A stretch of DNA of 45,730 nucleotides, taken from NCBI GenBank assembly GCA_017536625.1, contig JAFXGY010000001.1, positions 1 through 45,730 of the forward strand, written 5' to 3'. Made by a program: the position numbers and the translations under genes. Each line of letters opens with the position of its first letter. Position 1 is the first letter of the stretch. This DNA comes from Oscillospiraceae bacterium. Lineage in GTDB: Bacteria > Bacillota > Clostridia > Oscillospirales > Ruminococcaceae. Positions 3,049 through 45,730 of the stretch are shown here, piece after piece. The notes under the pieces were generated by a model. It was not told the DNA's origin. It worked only from the letters and a program-made list of their open reading frames with translations, and searched no databases.

Positions 3049-3982
3049 TCATCGTTCTGCCTCCCTTTGACGTTTGCGGTATAATTCTAATGCCTTGATA
3101 ATCGTTTCCTCAATTTTCTGGCTACTCGTCCCCGGTGCGAAATATTTGGAAATGCGTTCTTTCGGCATACGGAACTGTTCTTTTTGGTTCGGTTTTTCCT
3201 CTTGCAGAATTGACTGGATTACTCCTTCATTTAGCTTTCCTTCCTGTGAAAACTGGCGCATTTTAATTGCTTGCACATGTGAGGGAGTGCAATCTTCCCA
3301 CTCCATAGTGTTCAGCAATATTTCCTGCTCGTTTTCAGTAAGGTACGAAAGTTCCACAGCCGGACGCATAGCAATTTTGCCTTCGTCCACCATATCAAGA
3401 AGCGGCGGTGAGAGATAAGTCAGGCGGATATATTTTCTTATTTGTTCGTGGCTTTCACCATATTGTTCGGCTAATATATCTCTACTTTTTTTACCTTCTA
3501 AATGGGGCAACACCGTTGCACCATTTTCTTTTGGACGACCTGCTTGCCGTTTCATCGCGTCAAGCTTCATTTTGTAAGCAAAGGCTTTCTCAGAAGGAAG
3601 AAGTTGTTCTCTTTGAAGATTGCTGTCAACCATGAGAATAATTGCTTCATCGTCGGTCACATCCTGGACAATACACTTGATACTGTCTTTGCCGGCAAGT
3701 TCACTTGCTTTTTTGCGCCGATGTCCAGCTATCATTTCGTATTCTCCGTTACCCTTCGGTCTTACAATTACGGGGGAGAGGACTTTCGTATGATTTTACG
3801 CTTTCGACTAAATCCGACATGGATTCGTCCATTTTAACTTTGAAAGGGTGATTAGGAAAATCCAATATCTGCGATAAAGGGATTTCCATTATTGTTAATC
3901 TCTTTGCTTCATCACGTTCCTCTTGGGTCGTGAAAAGGTCATCTACTGATGTCAGCAGACTTGCTGCGCTGTTTTTCACCAA
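3049..3982 (-). pseudogene. parB: parB-like partition protein, frameshifted
   Basis: The two halves of one ParB/Spo0J-type protein are in different frames. The N-terminal part starts at TTG 3982 (or GTG 3979) behind a strong AAAGGAGGTGAT site and ends in a premature stop near 3749. The C-terminal part (in frame from about 3786 to 3049) has the ParB nuclease-like core with RPKGNGEYEMIAGHRRKK, then the helix-turn-helix region and a charged tail. Consensus ParB spacing is restored if one base is removed from the TTT run at 3784-3786 (AAA on the coding strand), giving Y-E-V-L-S-P-V-I-V-R-P. The start overlaps the parA end by 44 bp. It resembles ParB proteins of Firmicute conjugative elements. It could be a true pseudogene, a sequence error, or less likely a +1 shift at the C5 run 3772-3776. 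Confidence 0.8.
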
Positions 3983-4760
3983 TTTCTATCACCTCCTTTA
4001 CAAGCGTTCTGTAGCTTTCAGCGGCACGTCCGGTTGGTTCATGCCGGAAAATACTTTTGTTGGCGGTGCTTATTTCTGCAAGACGAACAGTCGAAGGAAT
4101 TACGGATTCCATCACTGGAAGATGTTTGCCATAGTTTTCTTTTACAGACGATACAATGTCTTTTCTGAAATTGGTTTCGTTTGCCATCGTGAGAAAGATT
4201 CCTCCGACTTTTAACCTCGGGTTGATTTGCCGTTTAATGCTCTGTACAGTTCCGATAAGTTCTGTCATATCCTCGGCAGCAAGATAATCTGCCTGAACGG
4301 GTATCAGAACATAATCCGAAGCGGACAAGGCATTGATAACCAGCATACCGAGAGAAGGTCTGCAATCAAGCAGCACATAATCGTAATCTTTCTTTACTCT
4401 GTCAATGTACTGCCGCAGGACCGTTTCTCTGCTCATTACGTTTACTAAACCTACCTCCACAGCGGACAGGGTTCTGTTTGCAGGGATAAAATCAAATCCC
4501 TCATAGTGGTGTTTAATTTCCGGATGTTCATCCTTGCCGCCGACACCGGACACAACATCATTCATGACGTTACTTAGTGTCAGCGGCAAATCATGGGGTT
4601 TCCGAAGACCAAGCATTTTTGTGAGATCTCCTTGTGGGTCAACATCCACAAGAAGAACTTTTTTGCCGTTCATCGCAAGACCAGCGCCGAGGTTATACAC
4701 AGTAGTGCTTTTCCCAACACCGCCTTTTTGATTTGCTACGGCAATTACTTTTGGTTTCAT
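3939..4760 (-). CDS. parA: ParA/Soj-type partition ATPase
   Basis: 273-residue ParA-family ATPase. A deviant Walker A (KGGVGKST, residues 12-19) sits at the N-terminus, followed by VDVDPQGDLTKML (switch I) and the Walker B-like strand YDYVLLDCRPSLG. These ATPases bind DNA nonspecifically and move ParB-bound cargo, or support maintenance of plasmids and integrative elements. The RBS AAGGAG precedes ATG 4760. Upstream lies a 54-codon gene and a small GC-rich hairpin; downstream parB overlaps and is frameshifted. It lies far from any recognisable oriC genes, and the gene set resembles ParA of integrative conjugative elements more than chromosomal soj; the element assignment is inference. Confidence 0.92.
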   Translation of the reverse strand: MKPKVIAVANQKGGVGKSTTVYNLGAGLAMNGKKVLLVDVDPQGDLTKMLGLRKPHDLPLTLSNVMNDVVSGVGGKDEHPEIKHHYEGFDFIPANRTLSAVEVGLVNVMSRETVLRQYIDRVKKDYDYVLLDCRPSLGMLVINALSASDYVLIPVQADYLAAEDMTELIGTVQSIKRQINPRLKVGGIFLTMANETNFRKDIVSSVKENYGKHLPVMESVIPSTVRLAEISTANKSIFRHEPTGRAAESYRTLVKEVIEIGEKQRSKSADISR

Positions 4761-5230: not shown

Positions 5231-6751
5231 TTAGTTCTGAGGTTTCATCGTGGGGAAGAGGAGAACGTCGCGGATGGATGCGCTGTCGGTAAGGAGCATA
5301 ACAAGTCTGTCAACACCGAATCCAAGTCCGCCGGTGGGTGCCATGCCATATTCAAGAGCGGTTACATAGTCATAGTCAACCTGTGCTTTGCTGGTGGGGT
5401 CAAGTTCAAGACGTTCTGCAACCTGGCGTTCAAAACGGCCTTTCTGGTCAATGGGGTCGTTAAGTTCGCTGAATGCGTTGCCGAATTCGGTGGCGTTGAT
5501 GAAATATTCAAAGCGTTCGGTGAATGCGGGGTCTTCCGGTTTGCGTTTTGCAAGGGGGCTGATTTCGACCGGGTAATCATAGATGAAAGTGGGCTGAATA
5601 AGGTTTTCTTCAACGAATGCATCAAAGAATTCAGCAAGAATCGCGCCTTTGGTGGGAACTTCGGGAAGTTCGACATTGTGTTTTTTAGCAAGTTCGATGG
5701 CTTCTTCGTCAGAAGCAACTTCTGCAAAGTCAACGCCGGAATATTTTTTGACAGCTTCGATCATGGTAAGACGTTCCCAGTGACCGAGGTCGATTTCAGT
5801 ACCCTGATAATTAATTTTGAGGGTTCCGCAAACGTTCATGGCAACGGTTTTCATCATATCTTCAACAAGGTCCATCATGCCGCGGAAATCGGTGAAAGCC
5901 TGATAAAGTTCGATGGAAGTGAATTCGGGGTTGTGTTTGGTATCCATACCTTCATTGCGGAAGATACGGCCGACTTCATAAACCCTGTCAAAACCGCCGA
6001 CAATAAGGCGTTTGAGGTAAAGTTCGGTTTCGATGCGGAGAACCATATCCATATCAAGGGTGTTGTGATAAGTAAGGAAAGGCCTTGCGGAAGCACCGAT
6101 TTCGAAAGGAGTAAGGATAGGGGTTTCAACTTCAAGGAAGCCGCGGCCATCAAGGAAGGAACGGAGTTCGCGCATGATCTGGCTGCGTTTTACGAAAGTA
6201 TCCTTAACTTCAGGGTTGATAATGAGGTCAACATATCTCTGTCTGTAACGGAGTTCCTGGTCTTTAAGGCCGTGGAATTTTTCCGGAAGGGGAAGAAGAG
6301 ATTTGGAAAGAAGAACGATTTTGGTTGCTTTTACGGAAATTTCGCCCATGTGGGTACGGAAAACAATGCCTTCGACACCGATGATATCGCCGATATCCCA
6401 TTTTTTGAAATCCGCATAATCTTCTTCGCCAACCATATCTTTACGGATATAAAGCTGGATTCTGCCTTCTTTATCCTGAAGGTCTGCAAAGGAAGCTTTG
6501 CCCATTCCACGTTTGCTCATAATGCGTCCCGCAAGAGAAACTGTCGTGGTGCTTTCTTCGCCCTCAGCAGGGTCAACGAAAGTTTCTTTAACGGTGCCGG
6601 AATAACCGGTTACGTTGAATTTGGTGATGGTGAAGGGGTCTTTTCCTGCTTCACGAAGTGCGGTGAGTTTATCACGGCGGATCTGGAGAAGTTCGGAAAG
6701 CTGTTCTGCAGAAAGTTCCTGCTGTTCCTGTTCCTGAATCTGTTCAGCCAT
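5231..6751 (-). CDS. lysS: Lysine--tRNA ligase, class II
   Basis: 506 residues, the usual length for bacterial LysRS. It charges tRNA-Lys in the cytosol using ATP. The N-terminal OB-fold anticodon-binding domain spans about residues 55-175. The class II catalytic core follows, with motif 2 around [18 protein letters not shown] and motif 3 in [13 protein letters not shown] near the C-terminus. The start ATG 6751 has a GGAAG site. The gene has its own promoter and is separated from upstream greA by a terminator, although greA-lysS adjacency is common in Firmicutes. The region just past the stop carries the phased repeats, making it a candidate integration site. Confidence 0.98.
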
Positions 6752-6802
6752 TTATTTTATCTTCCTTTCAAAAGGTTATTTTATTGCATAATAGAACATC
6801 TT

Positions 6803-6831
6803 ATTTTAACATATTTAAATAAAAATGACAA
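6803..6831 (-). promoter_or_regulatory. lysS promoter
   Basis: Minus strand TTGTCA (6826-6831), 17-bp spacer, TAAAAT (6803-6808), with an extended -10 TG. About 50 nt upstream of the lysS start. Confidence 0.8.
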
Positions 6832-6845
6832 CAGTTAAAACAAAG

Positions 6846-7397: not shown

Positions 7398-7426
7398 ATT
7401 ATATTCCCGGAAAGTGCCGTTGTCAA
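7398..7426 (-). promoter_or_regulatory. greA promoter, perfect SigA consensus
   Basis: Minus strand TTGACA (7421-7426), 17-bp spacer, TATAAT (7398-7403). The -35 begins only 7 nt beyond the stop of the upstream S41 gene, and no terminator separates the two. Confidence 0.9.
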
Positions 7427-7432
7427 GCAAAA

Positions 7433-8683
7433 TTAATTGTTTGGTTCATTTTCTTCAGAAGTATCGGATTCTTCCGGAACTTCGGACATAACAGAGGAAG
7501 AAGCAACTTCCAAAGCTTTGACAAGCTGGGTATCAAGGGAATAGGTATCAGCTGTGGGAAGGGAAGCGAGGTTCGAAAATTCGGTAGTCACAACATGGTC
7601 AGGAACGATTCCGGTTCCTTCCCAGGAATTGCCGGAATTCGCAAGGATATATTTGCCGGTGGTGAGCTGAACCGCGGAACCGTCGCTGAGTTTGAAAGTT
7701 TCCTGAAGTGAACCAAAGCCGGTGCTCTGAGTTCCGACCGTTTTTGCCTTTCCAAAGTCATAAAGGCTTGCCGCAAAAAATTCGGAAGCGCCCGCGCAGC
7801 CTTCGTTAATGAGAACAACTGCGGGAATTTCGGTTTCACGCGCGTTGGAAGAATAAAGGACTTCCTGATGATCTTCGCTGTATTCAACCATAAGGATATC
7901 GCCGGAACCAACCATTTTATCAACCATTTCCGCAGCGGCGGAAATAAGACCGGTGCTGACGGAACGGACGTCAAAAATGAGCGCGGAAACACCTTCGGAA
8001 ATAAGCTTTTCAACAGCTTTGCTGAACTGATCAGGGGTGCTTTCGGAAAAATCGCTTATGCGGATATAACCAAAGCTGTCGAGCTTTGTGGAAAAAACTG
8101 TGGTTTTGGTAAGAACACGGCGAGTGATCTCCATTTCGGTATCTTCGCTGTCGCGGCGGACTGTAAGAGTAACTTTTGTTCCCGCTTCGCCGGTAAGAAG
8201 AACTTCCGCTTCTGCAAATGTTTCGGAAGAAAGGGAAATATCATCGACTTTTACGATAATGTCGTTTACGAGGATTCCTGCGGAAGAAGCCGTAGAACCT
8301 TCCAGAACTTCGGTTACAAGCATATATCCGTCATTGTTCATGCTTACGGAAACGCCTACGCCTGCAACAGTTTCGGTGGAAGCTTCGAGATATAAGGCAT
8401 ATTCTTCTGCGCTCATATATTTTGCATAGGGGTCTTCGATGCCGCCGAGGTAGCCTTTTGCGACGGAGTCCATAAGAACGTTTTCATCAATGTGTTCGGG
8501 ATGATAGATTCGGACTATATTATCGATTTCGGTGAATTTTGCGTACATATTTTCGCGTTCGGTAATGCTGCTTACCTTATTATTGAAATTGCGCAGAGAG
8601 AAAACCGAAGTTAAAGTAAAGGTTATGGCAATTGCAATAAGAATAAGAGTAAAAGCAGTACCAAGACTGATTTTTTTACCCAT
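7433..8683 (-). CDS. CtpA-like S41 family protein lacking catalytic Ser and Lys (pseudo-protease)
   Basis: 416 residues. It has an N-terminal membrane anchor (about 8-30), then a cap region, a PDZ domain (about 100-180, with AGVGVSV and STASSAGILVNDIIVKVDD) and an S41 core. In C-terminal processing proteases a Ser in GxASASE and a Lys 25 residues later in TxGKGxxQ form the dyad. Here the positions read GCAGASE (Gly298) and TGFGSLQ (Phe323). The 25-residue spacing and the supporting Gln327 are kept, so the alignment is secure and both catalytic residues are gone. The usual RNNPGG-like segment is also degenerate (DVRSVSTG). It is the last gene of the ftsE-ftsX-M23 operon, 18 bp after the peptidase gene. 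A scaffolding or substrate-binding role outside the membrane is inferred. Confidence 0.88.
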   Translation of the reverse strand: MGKKISLGTAFTLILIAIAITFTLTSVFSLRNFNNKVSSITERENMYAKFTEIDNIVRIYHPEHIDENVLMDSVAKGYLGGIEDPYAKYMSAEEYALYLEASTETVAGVGVSVSMNNDGYMLVTEVLEGSTASSAGILVNDIIVKVDDISLSSETFAEAEVLLTGEAGTKVTLTVRRDSEDTEMEITRRVLTKTTVFSTKLDSFGYIRISDFSESTPDQFSKAVEKLISEGVSALIFDVRSVSTGLISAAAEMVDKMVGSGDILMVEYSEDHQEVLYSSNARETEIPAVVLINEGCAGASEFFAASLYDFGKAKTVGTQSTGFGSLQETFKLSDGSAVQLTTGKYILANSGNSWEGTGIVPDHVVTTEFSNLASLPTADTYSLDTQLVKALEVASSSVMSEVPEESDTSEENEPNN

Positions 8684-8701: not shown

Positions 8702-9946
8702 TTAGGTTATATAAGAAATGGGGTTTACGGCAGTGCCGTCAACACGAACTTCAAAATGAAGATGTGCGCCGGTGCTCCAGCCGGTGTTGCCGACATTTCC
8801 TATCTGTTCGCCCATAACAACAATATCGCCCTTTTGTACGGTGATATTGCTGAGGTGGGCATAAAGAGTCGATATACCGCCGCCATGGTCAACGATTACA
8901 TAAGTTCCGTAACCATAGGCATATCCGTTATAGGGACAGGTTTTTGTGAAAACAACGGTACCGGTGTTGGCTGCAACAACCTTTGCACCGTGAACGCCGC
9001 TGCCGGTAATATCGATTCCGGTATGGAAATCGGTGTTGTTAAAGCGCCATCCGTAATAGCTGGAAATTTTGGAATAACCGGGAACGGGCCACATCATTTC
9101 TCCGCCGACATATTCGGTATCGGAAGAATTGAGAGATCGGTAAATTTCAAGAATTTCTTCCTGAATTTTTTTGGACATTGCGGCATATTCCTCATAGTTT
9201 GCCTCGTATTCCTTCTGCATGGCGTTAAGGTCCTGAATAGAGTTTTTGGCCTCTTTAAGGTCTTTTTCGAGTTCTGCCTGTTCCGCTTCAAGAATGGCTT
9301 TTTCTTCTTCCAAAGCGGCTTTTTCCGCTTCAAGAACGGCTTTTTCTTCATCAAGAGCGTGAAGCTCGTCACGAAGTTCGTTGAGCATCTTCTGGTCGTG
9401 TTCAGCGATTCTTGCAAGATATTCGCTTCTGGTAAGGAATTCAGAAACGCTTCCGGAACCGAGAAGCATCATAAGCGAATTGGCGGTATCGGAATATCCG
9501 CCGGTCATATAAATCGCGCGGACTCTGTCACGGAAAAGCTGAAGATTATTTTCGATATCCTTTTCCTTATTACGGATTTCGATGTTTTTCTGGGTTATAT
9601 AGTTATTAGTGAGGGCGATTTTTTCTTTGCCCACTGCAATAAGCTCTTCGGTGATGCTGATTTTTTCGTCAATGGAATTTGCAAGCTTCTGAGCTTTTTT
9701 CTTTTCATCTTTGGTGCTGTTGATTTTATCCTTATAGGCATTCATCTGCTCCTGAAGCTTTACCTGCTCATCCTGAAGATCAGAAATCTGCTCGCGGTAT
9801 TCTTCGTCAGAAGCATCTTTTCCGGATTCTTTTGCTTCATCGCCTTCGTTTGCAAAAACGATGGGGGAGGAAACAAAAATCATAACGGCACCCATAAAAC
9901 AGCAAAGAACAGAAACAAGAAAGCGTTTTATCTTTTTAATGTTCAT
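8702..9946 (-). CDS. Secreted M23 (LytM-type) peptidoglycan hydrolase with coiled coil, FtsEX partner
   Basis: 414 residues. A signal peptide spans about 1-32 (ends VFA), then a long Glu/Lys-rich coiled coil (about 40-260), then an M23 domain (about 305-414). The layout is that of EnvC/PcsB-like hydrolases gated by FtsEX. Unlike E. coli EnvC, the zinc-site motifs look intact: FHTGIDI (His and Asp), the catalytic His in LYAHLS and the HLHFE pair, so it is probably an active endopeptidase cutting peptide cross-links. The RBS AAAGGAGG precedes ATG 9946 and the gene follows ftsX by 15 bp. The exact bond cut is unknown. Confidence 0.93.
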   Translation of the reverse strand: MNIKKIKRFLVSVLCCFMGAVMIFVSSPIVFANEGDEAKESGKDASDEEYREQISDLQDEQVKLQEQMNAYKDKINSTKDEKKKAQKLANSIDEKISITEELIAVGKEKIALTNNYITQKNIEIRNKEKDIENNLQLFRDRVRAIYMTGGYSDTANSLMMLLGSGSVSEFLTRSEYLARIAEHDQKMLNELRDELHALDEEKAVLEAEKAALEEEKAILEAEQAELEKDLKEAKNSIQDLNAMQKEYEANYEEYAAMSKKIQEEILEIYRSLNSSDTEYVGGEMMWPVPGYSKISSYYGWRFNNTDFHTGIDITGSGVHGAKVVAANTGTVVFTKTCPYNGYAYGYGTYVIVDHGGGISTLYAHLSNITVQKGDIVVMGEQIGNVGNTGWSTGAHLHFEVRVDGTAVNPISYIT

Positions 9947-9961
9947 AAAATGCCTCCTTTA

Positions 9962-10864
9962 TTATACTTTAAGATGTTTGCCGATAAACGCAACACAGCC
10001 GAAAAGTCCGATAAAAGCGCCGCCGCCGATGAATCCGATGAGAAGATACTGAGAAACTTCGGCAAAGGGAACAAGGTCGGAAATTATCTGGCTGAACCAG
10101 GTTGCGTTCTGGGAAGAAACCCATTTTACAAGATAGTCATAAGCAAAATAGATAATTCCATAAGAAATTGCGCCGGAAATAATGCCGAGGCTTATGCCTT
10201 CAACAACGAAAGGAAGGCGGATAAAGCCGTTGGTCGCACCGACATATTTCATTATGTTGACTTCTCTTCTTCTGCTGAAAACGGTGATTTTAATGGTGTT
10301 TCCTATAATCATAAGGGAAACCGCCACAAGAAGACCAATGATTATTGCACCGCCGATATATACCATGCGCTTGATTCCGGTAATGACTTCCGCAACTTCG
10401 GTAAGAGCGGAAACGGAATATACTCCGGGAAGGGCGGTTATATGGGCAACGGTAATTTCAAGGTCAGAAACATCATGGAAGGTGACACGGTAAGAATCCG
10501 GAAGATTGTTGTTGTCGTCATAGGCATCAAAAAGGATTCCATCATCGCCCATGGATTCCATCATGGAAAGAAGAGCGTCATGCTTCGAAATAAATTCGAT
10601 GGTGGCAACTTTTCCGGTGGCAACTATACCGTCACGAACTTCTTCTCTTTCGTCGGAATCAAGGTTATCTTCAAGATAAACAATAGCCTCGCTCTGGTCT
10701 TCAAGCGCATCAACAACGCTTGAAATATTAACGGAAAGAAGAAGAGCCGCACCGATAAGGAGCATACAGGAAGTGAGAACGCCGACGGAAGCTATGGACA
10801 TAAGACGGTTGTTCCAAAGGTTTTTGAAGCCCTGTCCCACAAGATAGAAGAAACTGTTCAGCAT
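9962..10864 (-). CDS. ftsX: Cell-division ABC transporter-like permease FtsX
   Basis: 300 residues in standard FtsX topology. There is one helix near residues 22-46, an extracellular loop of about 120 residues, and three C-terminal helices ending in a hydrophobic tail. The conserved cytosolic turn RRREVNIMKYVGATNGFIRLPFVVEG is present. FtsX does not transport; with FtsE it turns ATP hydrolysis into activation of an extracellular hydrolase, here most likely the adjacent M23 protein. The ATG at 10864 overlaps the ftsE 3' end, with GGAGG inside ftsE, so the two are translationally coupled. Confidence 0.96.
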   Translation of the reverse strand: MLNSFFYLVGQGFKNLWNNRLMSIASVGVLTSCMLLIGAALLLSVNISSVVDALEDQSEAIVYLEDNLDSDEREEVRDGIVATGKVATIEFISKHDALLSMMESMGDDGILFDAYDDNNNLPDSYRVTFHDVSDLEITVAHITALPGVYSVSALTEVAEVITGIKRMVYIGGAIIIGLLVAVSLMIIGNTIKITVFSRRREVNIMKYVGATNGFIRLPFVVEGISLGIISGAISYGIIYFAYDYLVKWVSSQNATWFSQIISDLVPFAEVSQYLLIGFIGGGAFIGLFGCVAFIGKHLKV

Positions 10865-11541
10865 AACTGCGCCTCCAATCCCTCGGTATCTCTTATAACT
10901 TCGCCCTCATCGATAGTGATAACGCGGTGATTGAACTGCTCAACAAGGTCATGCTCATGGGTTACCATTACAATGGTTACGCCGAGCTTATTGATTTCAT
11001 TAAGAAGATCCACGATTTCGTAAGAAAGCTCCGGGTCGATATTTCCGGTGGGTTCATCCGCAATGATAAGTGAAGGGGAATTTACGAGCGCCCTTGCAAG
11101 AGCAACACGCTGCTGTTCGCCGCCGGAAAGTTCTTCGGGTTTGCATTTCATTTTTGAAGAAAGCCCCACAAGATTCAGCATATAAGGAACTTTTCTTTTG
11201 ATTTCCTTATTGCGGACATTGGTGACACGAAGAGCAAACGCGACGTTATCATAAGCGGTCATATTCGGAATAAGGCGGAAATCCTGGAAAACAATGCCGA
11301 TGGAACGGCGGAATTTCGGGATTTTATATCTTGCCATTTTTCCAAGGTTTTTGCCGTTTACCTTAACAACGCCGGAATTTGCGGTTTCTTCCCTCAGCAT
11401 AAGTTTGATAAGGGTGGATTTTCCTGCGCCGGAAGAACCGACGATAAAAACGAATTCTCCGTCGTCAATGCGAAGATCAACGTTGTTCAATGCGACGGTG
11501 CCGTTTGGATATTTTTTGGTAACATTACGAAATTCTATCAA
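10858..11541 (-). CDS. ftsE: Cell-division ATP-binding protein FtsE
   Basis: 227-residue ABC ATPase. Walker A is GSSGAGKST, the Q-loop is VFQDF, the signature is LSGGEQQR, Walker B is LIIADEPTG and the switch His is in VTHEHD. It pairs with FtsX at the division site. The start is TTG 11541, chosen because GAGG lies 7 nt upstream. The gene follows the CdaR-type regulator by 35 bp without a terminator, so the operon reads regulator-ftsE-ftsX-M23-S41. Confidence 0.96.
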
Positions 11542-11576
11542 TGTTATACCTCACTATAAACGGTTTTGATTTTGGA

Positions 11577-12662
11577 TTAGTATTTAACGGGATTTGCGGA
11601 AAGATATTTTTTGACCATAAGAGCAACTTTGAAGATAATTGCATGGTCAAATTCGCGAAGGTCGAGTCCGGTGAGCTTTTTGATTTTTTCAAGACGGTAA
11701 ACAAGGGTGTTTCTGTGAACAAAAAGCTTGCGGCTGGTTTCGGAAACATTGAGGTTGTTTTCAAAGAATTTCTGGATGGTGAAAAGGGTTTCCTGATCGA
11801 GGCTTTCGATGGAACCTTTTTTGAAAACTTCCTTAAGGAACATTTCGCAAAGGGTGGTGGGAAGCTGATAGATAAGTCTTGCGATGCCAAGGTTGTTATA
11901 GCTTACGATGGCTTTGTCGGTATCAAAAACTTTTCCGACTTCAAGAGCAACCTGTGCTTCTTTAAAGCTCTTTGCAAGATCCTTGATTCCGGTAGCGGAT
12001 GTGCCGATACCTACGTTTACTTTGGTGAAAAATTCGCTGCCGAGGGTATCGACAATCGAGCGTGCGAGTTTTTCGAGATCGGCGATTTCGATTCCGGGTT
12101 TGATTTCTTTAACAAGAACAACGTCGGATTCGCTTACGCTGAAAACGAAATCCTTGGATTTATCCGGGAAAAGGTTCTGCACAACGTCGAAAACGGAAAT
12201 ATCGTTCGGAGTGAGAACGCGGATAAAGAGAACGACTCTCGAAACATCGGTGGGGAAGCGAAGTTCCCTTGCTTTGATATAAATATCGCCGGGAAGAATG
12301 TTATCGAGAATTACGTTTTTGATAAAGTTTGCACGGTCATATTTTTCATCGTAATATTGTTTGATTCCGGCAAGGGAAACAGCCATAAGAGAGCAGAACT
12401 GAGATGCAAGCTCATCTGTTCCTGCAACAAAAACCGCATATTCGGGTTTTTCTTCATTGCCGAAAGTTTTATATGTAAAACCGTCGCGGATATGGCATTC
12501 GCTTGTGGAACCGTAATCGGTTACGAGAAAATCGTTTCTTTCGCCGGTGCGGGCGAGATCGCTGCATGCGACAACGGAAGCTCCGTCATCAACAACGCCG
12601 ACAGTACGACCGATACTGTCATGCATCTGGTGTATTATACCCTGAAATAATCTGTTTGACAT
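11577..12662 (-). CDS. CdaR/PucR-type HTH regulator at the head of the ftsEX operon
   Basis: 361 residues from the ATG at 12662, chosen over an ATG 33 nt upstream because AGAGGGG lies just before it. The C-terminal PucR-type helix-turn-helix is clear in LNVSETSRKLFVHRNTLVYR near residues 305-330, followed by the usual YRLEKIKKLTGLDLR segment. The middle has a GGDEF-like fold seen in CdaR regulators, and the N-terminus is probably a ligand-sensing domain. Family members sense small metabolites, but the ligand here cannot be read. Its position as first gene of the division operon implies that it affects wall hydrolysis or simply shares the promoter. Confidence 0.85.
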   Translation of the reverse strand: MSNRLFQGIIHQMHDSIGRTVGVVDDGASVVACSDLARTGERNDFLVTDYGSTSECHIRDGFTYKTFGNEEKPEYAVFVAGTDELASQFCSLMAVSLAGIKQYYDEKYDRANFIKNVILDNILPGDIYIKARELRFPTDVSRVVLFIRVLTPNDISVFDVVQNLFPDKSKDFVFSVSESDVVLVKEIKPGIEIADLEKLARSIVDTLGSEFFTKVNVGIGTSATGIKDLAKSFKEAQVALEVGKVFDTDKAIVSYNNLGIARLIYQLPTTLCEMFLKEVFKKGSIESLDQETLFTIQKFFENNLNVSETSRKLFVHRNTLVYRLEKIKKLTGLDLREFDHAIIFKVALMVKKYLSANPVKY

Positions 12663-12700
12663 CAGTACCCCTCTTTCAATAATAAAAATGTCCATTACAT

Positions 12701-37297: not shown

Positions 37298-38599
37298 TCA
37301 GTTGAAGTTTCCGTTCCATAAAGGAAGTCCGGTAATATATTTCATTTCAACAGCAGGAACGTAATATGCGCCGAATTCTTTAAATCCGTCAAAATTTCCT
37401 GCCTTTGTATTATCAAGCGTACCGGGTATTTCTATAAGAAAACGATAATATGGCATCCATATTTTTTCGGAAGTACGACTTCTGTAAAGAAGTTCAACCC
37501 GCGCAATATATTCCTCACCGGGGATTTCATAAGGAACCGTTGTGATATAATTTCCGCCAAGCAGCATTTCTTTTGCTTCTTCAGGGGAAATAATCGGGTA
37601 TTCACCGATTTTTTCGGCGCATGAAAGATAATCGTTTATTCTGATGAGCATGAGTTTTCCTTCGTCGTTCGGCGCAACATCAACCTTATTGAAAGCAAAA
37701 TTCAGCATATCACTCAGTTCATCGCCGGAAAAATCATAAATGCTGTAGCTTCTGTTTTGATTTCCGTCAAAGGTATAATCTGCCCAGCTTATAAAAGTGG
37801 GTTCTTCAACGCCAATGAAATCACTGTAGCTCTGATATACATACGAAAGGATCTCAAAAGCTTCGCCGTCGGTTGTTCCGGAATATGTGAAGTTATAATT
37901 TTCCGGAAGTTCGAGACCTTCACGGAAGCGGTTTTCTTCTTTCCCGAATCTTGCAACGATCTGCCCGGAGGAGGAAACGTCGATACAGCAGTTTTCCGTA
38001 TAGGTATAGGTAAGGGTTACTGTATCAGCAGGAAAGTCGATTCCGGAAGTGGTTTCGCCAAGGGTCTCTTTTATAATTTCGTTTATTTCGGCATCAAGCG
38101 CTTTTGCAGAAAAATCGAGTTTTTCGAGCATGGCTTCTTCTCCGATTCCGGGAAGGGCAATGCCTGTTTCATGGAAAGATTTGTTTTCGAAAACCGGAAG
38201 AGTTTCGAAAACCATATTTTCATTCCATGGGTTTCCGCTGTCAAGTTCAGAAACGTCGTGCGCAATGTATCCTTCCCACCCGTATGCCATACCTTCAGCT
38301 TCTTCATAATGCAGAATCGGCAGATTTTCATAACCGCCGTATTCCTGCTCGGTTCCGCTTATAAAACCGGGGTTTTCTGTTCCGCTGTTAAGAGGAAAAT
38401 CATTCGGTTCATCAATGGGAGGCTCTGAAACATCGAAGGCTTTTATGCCTGCAAGGGCAATTATTGCAATTGCTGCTGCAGAAGCACCGTATCGAAGCCA
38501 GATGTTTTTTCGATTTTTCGGTTTCCTCGTTTCGTTTGCGGATTTTATTATTTCATCGTCAATATCATTGATTGCGCGGCTGATATCTTCTGAATTCAT
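37298..38599 (-). CDS. Membrane protein with anti-sigma-like architecture, partner of the ECF sigma factor
   Basis: 433 residues. A short cytosolic N-terminus (1-35, acidic then Lys/Arg-rich), one helix (about 36-53), then a large external domain of about 380 residues with no recognised fold. This order, and the 4-nt overlap with the ECF sigma gene, match membrane anti-sigma factors that hold sigma until an envelope signal arrives. The cytosolic part is too short for a classical zinc anti-sigma domain, so binding is unproven. The external part might instead be the output of the regulon. Confidence 0.72.
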   Translation of the reverse strand: MNSEDISRAINDIDDEIIKSANETRKPKNRKNIWLRYGASAAAIAIIALAGIKAFDVSEPPIDEPNDFPLNSGTENPGFISGTEQEYGGYENLPILHYEEAEGMAYGWEGYIAHDVSELDSGNPWNENMVFETLPVFENKSFHETGIALPGIGEEAMLEKLDFSAKALDAEINEIIKETLGETTSGIDFPADTVTLTYTYTENCCIDVSSSGQIVARFGKEENRFREGLELPENYNFTYSGTTDGEAFEILSYVYQSYSDFIGVEEPTFISWADYTFDGNQNRSYSIYDFSGDELSDMLNFAFNKVDVAPNDEGKLMLIRINDYLSCAEKIGEYPIISPEEAKEMLLGGNYITTVPYEIPGEEYIARVELLYRSRTSEKIWMPYYRFLIEIPGTLDNTKAGNFDGFKEFGAYYVPAVEMKYITGLPLWNGNFN

Positions 38600-43358: not shown

Positions 43359-45730
43359 ATGAAAAGAATTTTAAGCTTTTTCCTTGCAGTAATCATGGTT
43401 CTTTCCATGGGAATCACCGCGTTTGCTGCAGAAAACGACGTTGTTATTCTTTATACCAACGACGTTCACACCTATATCGACGGGGAATTGAGCTACGACG
43501 TTATAGCTGGATATAAAACCCAGCTTACCGCCGCAGGCAACGACGTAATTCTCGTTGATGCAGGTGACCATATCCAGGGTACCGCATATGGTTCCATGGA
43601 TAAAGGCAAAACCATCATCGAACTCATGAACTCCGCAGGTTACGACCTTGCAACCCTCGGCAACCATGAATTCGACTATGGTATGGAAGGCCGCATCAAT
43701 GTTACTGATGTATGGGCAAACTTCCCTTACGTATCCTGCAACTTCTATCATGAAGCAGACGGCGTAAAGGGTGAATCCGTTCTCGATGCATACAAAGTAT
43801 TCACCGCAGGCGGCAAAAAAATTGCATTCATCGGTATCACTACTCCGGAATCCTTCACCAAATCCACCCCGAAATATTTCATGGATGAAAACGGAAACTA
43901 CATCTATGGTATTGCAGGCGGCGAAGATGGTCAGGAACTTTATGATGCAGTTCAGGCAGCAATCGATGCAGCATCCGCAGAAGCTGATATCGTAATCGCT
44001 CTCGGACACCTCGGCGACGATGTTTCTTCCCAGCCCTGGACTTCCGAAGAACTCATTGCAAACACCACCGGACTTGATGCATTCATCGACGGTCACTCCC
44101 ACAGCACCGTAGTTGGCAAAAATGTTGCTGATAAAAACGGTGATGCTGTTCTTCTTACCCAGACCGGCGAATACTTCGATACCATCGGTAAAATGACCAT
44201 CAAAGCTGATGGTACCGTTACCACCGAACTCGTAACCGAAGTTACCGCAGAACCCGACGTAGTAACCAAAGCAATCAAAGAAGCCTGGATGACCGAAGTT
44301 GATACCCTTCTCGGAACCAAAATCGGTACTACCGGCGAAATCGTTCTCGATAACTATGATGCAGAAGGCAACCGTCTTGTTCGTAAATACGAAACCAACA
44401 CCGGTGACTTTGCAGCAGATGCACTTTATCACCTCTTCGACGTAACCGAAGGTCTTAAAGTTGATGCAGCAATCATGAACGGCGGCGGCGTACGTAACAA
44501 AGCAATCACCGGCGACATCTCTTACAAAACCTGCAAAGAGATCCACACCTTCGGCAACGTAGCATGCCTTATCACCGTAACCGGCCAGCAGCTTCTTGAT
44601 GCTCTTGAATGGGGCGCAAAGAACACTCCTGCATCCGAAAACGGCGGTTTCCTCCATGTTTCCGGCGTAACTTATGAAGTACACGGATACATTCCCTCCA
44701 CTGTTCAGGCAGACGACAAAGGCGTATGGGTTGGCGGTCCTACCGGCGAATACAGAGTCAAAAACGTAACTGTCGGCGGACAGCCCCTTGAACTCGACAA
44801 AGAATATAACCTTGCAGGTTATAACTACACCCTCCGTGACCTCGGCGACGGCTTTGCAATGTTCGACGGCGCAAAAGCAGTTAAAGACTATGTCATGGAA
44901 GACTACATGGTTCTTGCAAACTACGTTCAGTCCTTCGAAGGCGGCGTTCTTCCCGAAAAATACGCTGCACCTCAGGGCAGAATCGTAATTGTTGAAGAAA
45001 GTGAAAACGTTAAAGATAAATACGAAGCACCTGCAGACGTAGAAGCAGGCTGGAACCCCTATGTTAAAGAAGCAATCGATGACCTCATTGCAGAATACGG
45101 CAACACCGAAAATGCATACGTAGTATTCGACTTCGATAACACCACTTCCATCTTCGACGTAGAAGAACAGCTCGCAGTATATCAGCTCCAGGTAATGGCA
45201 TTTGAATTCACTCCTGAAGAAATGCCTGCAATCCTTGCAACCGAACTCGGTGACCTCAACGAAGACAGAACTGACCTTGGTTATGGCAACGGTTCTTACC
45301 AGGATTGGATCGATGACATCACTGCAGCATATACTTACCTTTATGAAACCTATGGTCCGTTCAATGCAGCAGGTCTCAAATCTTATCAGCAGAATAAAGT
45401 ACATGCAGATCCCATGTGGGAAGAATTTGCAGCAAAAATGAGAGCAATGTATGACCTCGTTTATGACGCAGAATCTCCCGCAGTAGCATATCCTTGGGTA
45501 CTTTATTGGTTCACCGGCATGACTGAAGAGGAAGTTTATGATCTTGCTTATGCATCTCATTCTTACTACGGCGCAGTAGAAACCTCCGAAGTAACCTGGG
45601 AAACTGCAGGCGAAGGCACCAAAGTAGGTCCTGTATCCTACACCTGGACTTCCGGTACCGGCGTATCCGAACAGCTCAAAGATCTCTATAAATGGCTCGA
45701 CGAAGCAGGTATTGATGTATGGGTATGCTC
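43359..45730 (+). CDS. Secreted 5'-nucleotidase (UshA-like) fused to a HAD phosphatase domain (3' end outside window)
   Basis: At least 790 residues; the end lies beyond the window. ATG 43359 follows AAAGGAGG. A signal peptide covers about 1-22 (ends AFAA). The metallophosphatase domain has NDVH, GDH, GNHEFD, ALGHLGD and DGHSH, a full two-metal site. The 5-nucleotidase C-terminal domain has NGGGVRN and AGYNYTLRDLGDG. From about residue 560 a third domain follows, with HAD motif I FDFDNTTSIFD (Asp591, Asp593, Thr595). The window ends in VWVC plus TC, which must encode Ser, matching HAD motif II. The DFDNTT form recalls phosphorylcholine phosphatase. It would release phosphate outside the cell from nucleotides and a second ester. 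The codon use, rich in GCA/GTA, differs from nearby genes and suggests high expression. Confidence 0.9.
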   Translation, partial: MKRILSFFLAVIMVLSMGITAFAAENDVVILYTNDVHTYIDGELSYDVIAGYKTQLTAAGNDVILVDAGDHIQGTAYGSMDKGKTIIELMNSAGYDLATLGNHEFDYGMEGRINVTDVWANFPYVSCNFYHEADGVKGESVLDAYKVFTAGGKKIAFIGITTPESFTKSTPKYFMDENGNYIYGIAGGEDGQELYDAVQAAIDAASAEADIVIALGHLGDDVSSQPWTSEELIANTTGLDAFIDGHSHSTVVGKNVADKNGDAVLLTQTGEYFDTIGKMTIKADGTVTTELVTEVTAEPDVVTKAIKEAWMTEVDTLLGTKIGTTGEIVLDNYDAEGNRLVRKYETNTGDFAADALYHLFDVTEGLKVDAAIMNGGGVRNKAITGDISYKTCKEIHTFGNVACLITVTGQQLLDALEWGAKNTPASENGGFLHVSGVTYEVHGYIPSTVQADDKGVWVGGPTGEYRVKNVTVGGQPLELDKEYNLAGYNYTLRDLGDGFAMFDGAKAVKDYVMEDYMVLANYVQSFEGGVLPEKYAAPQGRIVIVEESENVKDKYEAPADVEAGWNPYVKEAIDDLIAEYGNTENAYVVFDFDNTTSIFDVEEQLAVYQLQVMAFEFTPEEMPAILATELGDLNEDRTDLGYGNGSYQDWIDDITAAYTYLYETYGPFNAAGLKSYQQNKVHADPMWEEFAAKMRAMYDLVYDAESPAVAYPWVLYWFTGMTEEEVYDLAYASHSYYGAVETSEVTWETAGEGTKVGPVSYTWTSGTGVSEQLKDLYKWLDEAGIDVWVC

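What the first reader, a model, noticed from the sequence alone, without database searches (positions are those of the whole stretch)
7433..8683. Catalytically dead CtpA-type protein encoded inside the ftsEX-M23 operon
Both dyad positions are replaced (Ser to Gly298, Lys to Phe323) while the exact 25-residue spacing and Gln327 are kept, and each change needs more than a single sequencing error. A PDZ-bearing pseudo-protease as the last gene of a division operon suggests a scaffold that docks or holds the LytM peptidase or its substrates. That would be an FtsEX branch in which proteolysis has been replaced by binding.
Basis: partly seen in the sequence, partly recalled or inferred. Interest (0 to 1): 0.72.

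Follow-up and report, generated by a model that had tools for sequence, protein, structure and literature searches.

The report
Dead protease kept in division operon
A gut bacterium and its sampled close relatives keep, beside the genes that control cutting of the cell wall at division, a protein shaped like a protease whose cutting residues are gone, and the same change recurs in related bacteria, which suggests that the protein works by binding rather than by cutting.

Summary
Confirmed and extended. The 416-aa protein at 7433-8683 (minus strand) is a CtpB/CtpA-type S41 protein with PDZ domain that has lost the catalytic Ser (Gly298), the Lys (Phe323) and the oxyanion Asn (Val242); the Gln is kept. 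It is neither an error nor erosion: all 14 genus genomes that hold the gene have Gly298 and lack the Lys, in the same cluster (CdaR-type regulator, ftsE, ftsX, M23, S41), under purifying selection (omega 0.14). It is the only S41 gene found in 12 of the 14. The neighbouring M23 hydrolase keeps its metal-ligand motifs.

The larger result is recurrence. Of 209 related S41 proteins sampled, 52 lack the nucleophile, all in one order, through about 16-19 changes (8 forced by well-supported branches); 0 of 46 from other orders of the class do. One family carries a tandem pair, a dead copy followed by an intact one. Loss of sporulation does not explain it (SpoIVB in 11 of 11 genus genomes tested).

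Most likely this is a membrane-anchored, non-proteolytic binding partner of the FtsEX-M23 module. The partner and the direction of the effect are inferred, not shown; the structure model was poor.

The parts
7433..8683 (-). S41-type pseudoprotease, 416 aa, last gene of the cluster
   Evidence: Pfam S41 and PDZ; dyad absent; omega 0.142 in the genus
8582..8665 (-). N-terminal hydrophobic helix (residues 7-34), probable membrane anchor
   Evidence: sequence; helix in a low-confidence model
8405..8587 (-). N-terminal helices (residues 33-93), CtpB_N-like, dimerisation motif in CtpB
   Evidence: Pfam PF22694 below its cut-off; CtpB dimer in PMC3808539
8123..8374 (-). PDZ domain (residues about 104-187)
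   Evidence: Pfam PDZ_2, PDZ_6, PDZ; omega 0.133
7949..7960 (-). former oxyanion motif NPGG, here VSTG (residues 242-245)
   Evidence: N242 in 152 of 152 intact rows, V in 14 of 14 genus rows
7790..7792 (-). Gly298, place of the catalytic Ser (GGC)
7715..7717 (-). Phe323, place of the catalytic Lys (TTT)
7703..7705 (-). Gln327, third triad residue, kept (CAG)
8702..9946 (-). M23 peptidase with PcsB-type coiled coil, 414 aa
   Evidence: Pfam M23 2e-29, CC_PcsB 3e-10; HxxxD and HxH motifs present
9962..10864 (-). ftsX
   Evidence: NCBIfam FtsX_Gpos above cut-off
10858..11541 (-). ftsE
   Evidence: NCBIfam FtsE above cut-off
11577..12695 (-). CdaR/PucR-type regulator, conserved upstream neighbour
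   Evidence: Pfam HTH_30, GGDEF_2; same place in the genus loci
7398..7426 (-). sigma-70-like site before greA
   Evidence: TTGACA-17-TATAAT, 12 of 12; consensus match only

Best explanation
A maintained pseudoprotease: a membrane-anchored CtpB-type protein that lost its cutting chemistry in the ancestor of the genus or earlier but kept fold, PDZ domain and place in the operon. I propose that the ancestral protease of this locus bound the M23 hydrolase (or another envelope protein) through the PDZ cleft and the channel between cap and core, and that in this lineage binding, not cleavage, is what selection keeps. The dead protein would hold the M23 hydrolase at FtsX or limit its access to the wall. 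Shown: dyad and oxyanion loss, retention, purifying selection, conserved cluster, recurrence in relatives. Inferred: absence of activity (from residues), dimer formation, the binding partner, and whether it activates or restrains.
For: Gly298 in 14 of 14 genus genomes holding the gene, Lys lost in all, Gln kept in all read. Same cluster in 14 of 14. omega 0.142; omega fixed at 1 is 766 log units worse, kappa also fixed in that run; pairwise dN/dS 0.076-0.157 in four genus pairs against 0.046-0.204 in seven intact pairs. Structural columns D238, R240, E301, G317 identical in 209 of 209 rows. Only S41 gene in 12 of 14. M23 motifs in 13 of 13 paired. Repeated loss in the order, none in 46 rows of other orders; tandem dead and intact copies in 11 of 12 f10 loci. 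S41-M23 distance link in the genus after control for CdaR, FtsE, FtsX, r 0.55 p 0.001. Precedents: CtpA degrades M23 hydrolases (PMC11021448 passages); FtsX partner EnvC is an inactive LytM protein (PMC7668044 passages).
Against: No binding or activity data. The S41-M23 link is absent in the 18 testable lost loci outside the genus (r 0.13, p 0.20), and S41 also follows CdaR (r 0.29-0.58), so a shared rate may explain it. Two lost loci (L102, L108) show no ftsEX or M23 gene upstream, so the link to FtsEX is not universal. The PDZ substrate-sensor position is not Arg/Lys in any of 14 genus rows. The structure model is poor.
Confidence: 0.6

Rival explanations
1. Ordinary decay: an ex-protease drifting under relaxed selection after its substrate was lost.
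For: S41 has a higher omega than its neighbours M23, FtsX and FtsE (0.142 against 0.092, 0.081, 0.043); more active-site residues are lost in some lineages.
Against: omega far below 1 in every part of the protein, and pairwise values like those of intact relatives; open frame and operon place kept in 14 genomes.
Confidence: 0.03
2. Cryptic or altered catalysis: a moved nucleophile or a new chemistry uses the old site.
For: Gln327 is kept; W354, E355 and L347 are new invariants near the site; Cys replaces Ser with Lys kept in a few relatives.
Against: No new invariant Ser, Cys, His or Lys in the genus; oxyanion motif lost; position 323 varies among F, Y, V, M.
Confidence: 0.06
3. Pseudo-subunit that assembles with, and regulates, an active protease.
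For: Family f10 keeps a dead copy directly before an intact one in 11 of 12 loci. In the P. aeruginosa CtpA-LbcA complex only one CtpA of each dimer is activated (PMC11021448 passages).
Against: In the window genome and 11 other genus genomes no other S41 gene was found, so the partner would have to be of another family.
Confidence: 0.12
4. A non-catalytic role in sporulation signalling, as CtpB acts in B. subtilis.
For: B. subtilis CtpB is a close solved relative and a sporulation protease (PMC3808539, PMC13174948 passages); SpoIVB is present in 11 of 11 genus genomes tested; the window holds SpoIIGA.
Against: The gene lies in the ftsEX-M23 cluster. SpoIVB does not separate dead from intact: 33 of 36 non-intact and 41 of 44 intact genomes have it.
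Confidence: 0.12

Closest known systems
B. subtilis CtpB (PDB 4c2c-4c2h)
   Same: N-terminal helices, PDZ, cap and core; aligned over residues 42-364
   Different: CtpB has the Ser309-Lys334-Gln338 triad and a C-terminal helical dimerisation domain (PMC3808539 passages); here Ser and Lys are gone and the chain ends soon after the core
P. aeruginosa CtpA-LbcA
   Same: Best sequence match in the PDB; a CTP that acts on wall hydrolases including two M23 peptidases
   Different: Active protease with a lipoprotein activator, in a Gram-negative
RBP3/IRBP of vertebrates
   Same: S41-derived protein that lost the protease catalytic residues and binds instead (PMC11750400 passages)
   Different: Retinoid carrier; no PDZ anchor role, no link to cell division
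EnvC of E. coli
   Same: Inactive peptidase relative that works as partner of FtsEX (PMC7668044 passages)
   Different: A degenerate LytM/M23 protein with coiled coil, not S41; here the M23 protein looks intact
SweC/SweD of B. subtilis
   Same: Non-enzymatic membrane cofactors of an FtsEX hydrolase module (PMC6705773 passages)
   Different: Small unrelated proteins, not protease-derived

Membership tests
Peptidase S41 / CtpA-CtpB type, as fold family | S41 core and PDZ above curated cut-offs | tested here: met
   PF03572 118 bits (cut-off 24), PDZ_2 49 bits (27)
Peptidase S41 / CtpA-CtpB type, as fold family | NCBIfam prc subfamily TIGR00225 cut-off | tested here: not met
   203.8 bits against 218.6
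Active C-terminal processing protease | Ser-Lys dyad and Gln | tested here: not met
   Gly298, Phe323; only Gln327 kept
Active C-terminal processing protease | Oxyanion motif with conserved Asn and Gly pair | tested here: not met
   VSTG; Asn in 152 of 152 intact rows
Active C-terminal processing protease | Proteolytic activity | not testable with these tools
   needs purified protein
Functional pseudoenzyme | Catalytic residues lost with purifying selection across species | tested here: met
   14 genomes; omega 0.142
Functional pseudoenzyme | A demonstrated non-catalytic function | not testable with these tools
   none known
FtsEX hydrolase module component | Conserved linkage to ftsE, ftsX and M23 | tested here: met
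   14 of 14 genus genomes; in other lost rows 25 of 38 show ftsEX, 10 more M23 only (mostly short loci), 2 none, 1 no room
FtsEX hydrolase module component | Physical contact with FtsX or M23 | not testable with these tools
   only rate covariation in the genus, not in other lost loci

The most novel reading that the evidence does not exclude
The CTP encoded with ftsEX is in general a structural or binding subunit of the FtsEX-hydrolase machine and its proteolysis is the dispensable part. In one bacterial order the chemistry has therefore been discarded many times, or left to a second copy (the f10 tandem pair). The window protein is one case of a recurrent conversion of a protease into a non-cutting regulator of wall hydrolysis, and intact members elsewhere would have an unrecognised non-catalytic role in division.
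Probability: 0.35. Interest if true: 0.85.

Novelty: new variant of a known kind. Interest (0 to 1): 0.7.

Why it matters
FtsEX modules are steered by partners that are known in only a few model bacteria. A protease-derived, apparently non-cutting protein that is retained beside ftsEX and has arisen repeatedly points to a binding role for CTPs next to wall hydrolases. That can be tested directly, because related dead and intact forms exist, in one family even in tandem. It also warns that an 'S41 family peptidase' label at these loci does not imply proteolysis.

Tried and rejected
Sequencing or assembly error: rejected, 14 genomes share the state. Local erosion: rejected by the codon models. 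Compensation by another S41 gene: not found in 12 of 14 genus genomes, nor in 20 of 25 other non-intact family genomes (two of the 25 are Cys variants). Loss of sporulation as cause: rejected. Moved nucleophile: no candidate. A C-terminal tail of M23 that separates dead from intact: none seen; the 13 genus tails end in YIT or YVT. PDZ sensor position 164: Arg/Lys in 0 of 14 genus and 8 of 38 other lost rows against 49 of 106 intact rows of the order (Fisher p 0.0002); rows are related, so that p is too small, and intact rows vary too. AlphaFold from seven sequences was poor (mean pLDDT 51.6, pTM 0.47), so its Foldseek matches to CtpA and CtpB add little. Viral contigs: no relative. Rfam on the window: two tRNAs only.

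Rows left out of counts: L063 (second fragment of the G011 gene; it reads G-V-Q) from trees and groups; L145, L148, L154 (same genes as L097, L105, L132); the 23 rows came later and are not among the 209. The tree used a simpler model (LG+G4), a short search and SH-aLRT support only. Family, order and class loci were chosen by me from the listed, higher-scoring matches (lists were capped), so fractions describe this sample and are not prevalence. Rows are 'intact' if Ser and Lys are kept; 2 of the 152 intact rows (L167, L183) lack the Gln. Codon model at omega 1 also fixed kappa at 2.

Full report
OBSERVATION. The gene is on the minus strand, 8683 down to 7433, 416 aa. Pfam finds Peptidase_S41 (204-365) and PDZ_2 (109-186) above cut-off and a sub-threshold CtpB_N-like stretch (33-93). 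The best solved relatives are P. aeruginosa CtpA (E 1.9e-41) and B. subtilis CtpB (E 8.9e-35) (the organism of the first from titles). The CtpB alignment is anchored by two mutant chains: 4c2e (S309A) and 4c2f (R168A) differ in the columns of Gly298 and Thr164. Lys334 falls on Phe323 and Gln338 on Gln327. CtpB uses Ser309, Lys334 and Gln338, and Q338E abolishes activity (PMC3808539, passages). The NPGG motif is also replaced, by VSTG. The remark that each change needs more than one error does not hold for Ser to Gly (one base from AGC or AGT), which no longer matters.

CLOSE RELATIVES. In the genus, 14 of 15 genomes hold an orthologue (60-73% identity outside the window genome, which is one of the 14); the fifteenth is 73% complete. 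All 14 have Gly at 298 and Val at 242. At 323 the 13 rows that can be read have F5, Y5, V2, M1, and Gln327 in all 13. The gene of G011 is split between two contigs; its second piece, L063, reads G-V-Q. The cluster CdaR-type regulator, ftsE, ftsX, M23, S41 is present in all 14: the window and loci L050-L062. The NCBI titles of seven genus contigs read Oscillospiraceae bacterium; six name a goat, deer or buffalo gut sample. PF03572 finds only this gene in 12 of the 14; G009 and G011 have further, divergent S41 matches.

SELECTION. A codon model over 13 genus sequences gives omega 0.142 for S41, 0.092 for M23, 0.081 for FtsX, 0.043 for FtsE. Fixing omega at 1 (and kappa at 2) costs 766 log-likelihood units. 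The restraint covers all parts: N-terminal 0.105, cap 0.162, PDZ 0.133, core 0.151, tail 0.254. Pairwise dN/dS is 0.076-0.157 in four genus pairs, against 0.046-0.204 in seven measurable pairs of intact relatives; one lost and one intact pair were saturated. The gene evolves faster than its neighbours, but no faster relative to silent change than intact proteases do.

RECURRENCE. From the same family outside the genus I fetched 80 loci (80 genomes, 67 genera): 55 keep Ser and Lys, 23 lack the nucleophile, 2 have Cys. In the order survey, 8 of 8 loci of family f24 are dead; f10 has a dead copy beside an intact one; one of three f19 loci is dead. Further family f1 rows there are mixed. Loci fetched from families f2, f3, f4, f6-f9, f12-f18, f20, f21, f23 and f26 keep Ser and Lys; f5, f11, f22 and f25 were not sampled. 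From other orders of the class 46 of 46 are intact. Of 209 rows, 52 lack the nucleophile (14 genus, 38 others), 5 have Cys, 152 are intact. Not every row was seen beside ftsEX, often because the fetched piece was short: 14 of 14 genus, 25 of 38 other lost (10 more with M23 only), 87 of 106 intact rows of the order, 23 of 46 of other orders, 2 of 5 Cys rows; two lost loci, L102 and L108, show neither gene upstream. A tree without the trait columns needs 16 changes (18 if Cys counts as lost), 8 forced by well-supported branches, and holds 19 separate all-lost groups when rooted on the other orders. The 94-row family tree under a better model needs 12, 5 forced, Cys counted as lost. Such counts do not tell loss from gain, but regaining a dyad is implausible and the outgroup is uniformly intact.

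PATTERN OF DECAY. Gly replaces Ser in 43 of 52 lost rows; R, A, Y, D and Q make up the other nine. Eleven of the 38 non-genus rows keep Lys. No row, of 209 or of the 236 in the full alignment, keeps Ser without Lys. So Ser goes first, then Lys, then, in some lineages, Gln and the oxyanion loop. D238, R240, E301 and G317 are the same in 209 of 209 rows. This is how selection on the fold without selection on the chemistry should look.

THE TANDEM PAIR. In family f10, 11 of 12 loci carry two S41 genes in a row: the first dead (D or G at 298; I, M, V, A or K at 323), the second intact. The twelfth is cut by its contig end. ftsE and ftsX are seen upstream in 10 of the 11 (L184 starts at the pair), and an M23 gene between in 7. 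The dead copies form one clade and the intact copies another, both at 100; the two are not sisters in that tree, so the origin of the pair is open. A dead copy kept beside an intact one suggests different jobs.

WHAT IT DOES. The M23 neighbour keeps HxxxD and HxH motifs in 13 of 13 genus members paired, 30 of 34 other lost, 80 of 85 intact rows of the order and 27 of 29 of other orders (loose motifs). So an apparently working hydrolase sits beside a dead protease relative. CTPs elsewhere act on such hydrolases: CtpA-LbcA degrades MepM and PA4404, both M23 (PMC11021448, passages). FtsEX systems use an inactive peptidase relative, EnvC (PMC7668044, passages), and membrane cofactors, SweC and SweD (PMC6705773, passages). 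In the genus, S41 distances follow M23 distances after control for CdaR, FtsE and FtsX (r 0.55, p 0.001; 0.47 to 0.59 with one or two taxa dropped), while the S41-FtsX link is not significant given M23. Against this, S41 also follows CdaR (r 0.29-0.58), and the 18 testable lost loci outside the genus show no clear M23 link (r 0.13, p 0.20). I favour a membrane-anchored binding subunit of the FtsEX-M23 module at 0.6 and mark the partner as inferred.

ALTERNATIVES. Decay is contradicted for the genus. Cryptic catalysis lacks a candidate residue. A pseudo-subunit of another protease fits f10 better than the window genus. A sporulation role cannot be excluded: SpoIVB is in 11 of 11 genus genomes tested and the window holds SpoIIGA. 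But SpoIVB does not separate dead from intact genomes (22 of 25 other non-intact, 41 of 44 intact).

KNOWN OR NEW. A dead S41-derived protein is known in vertebrates (RBP3; PMC11750400, passages). In ten paper searches (capped listings and starts of abstracts) and passages of seven papers I saw no report of an inactive S41 protein in bacteria or in an ftsEX operon; this covers that open-access library only. That B. subtilis ctpB also lies near ftsEX is recalled, not tested here. I rate it a new variant of a known kind.

Noticed in passing
L184-L187, L258-L260, L262-L265 (family f10): Tandem S41 genes, the first without and the second with the dyad, as two separate clades; where ftsEX is in view it lies upstream.
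   Followed up: partly
L099, L132, L152, L153, L161, L267-L269: Cys in place of the catalytic Ser with Lys kept; in one genus (g16) Cys and Gly forms both occur. Possibly thiol variants or steps towards loss.
   Followed up: partly
11577-12695: A CdaR/PucR-type regulator sits directly upstream of ftsE in the genus and in many loci of the order and class: a regulator may be coupled to FtsEX.
   Followed up: no
8756-10723, 5678-6838, 11541-12650 (plus strand): Long open frames (655, 386, 369 aa) antisense to M23-ftsX, lysS and the regulator; probably an effect of codon use.
   Followed up: no
3939-4760 and 3049-3735 (minus strand): A ParA-type ATPase (AAA_31) and a ParB-like frame without a Pfam match at 1e-6.
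   Followed up: no
43371-45560, 37298-38599, 975-2933: Large open frames (729, 433, 652 aa) without a Pfam match at 1e-6.
   Followed up: no
L186, L263, L264: f10 loci where no M23 gene was recognised between ftsX and the S41 pair; what lies there was not looked at.
   Followed up: no
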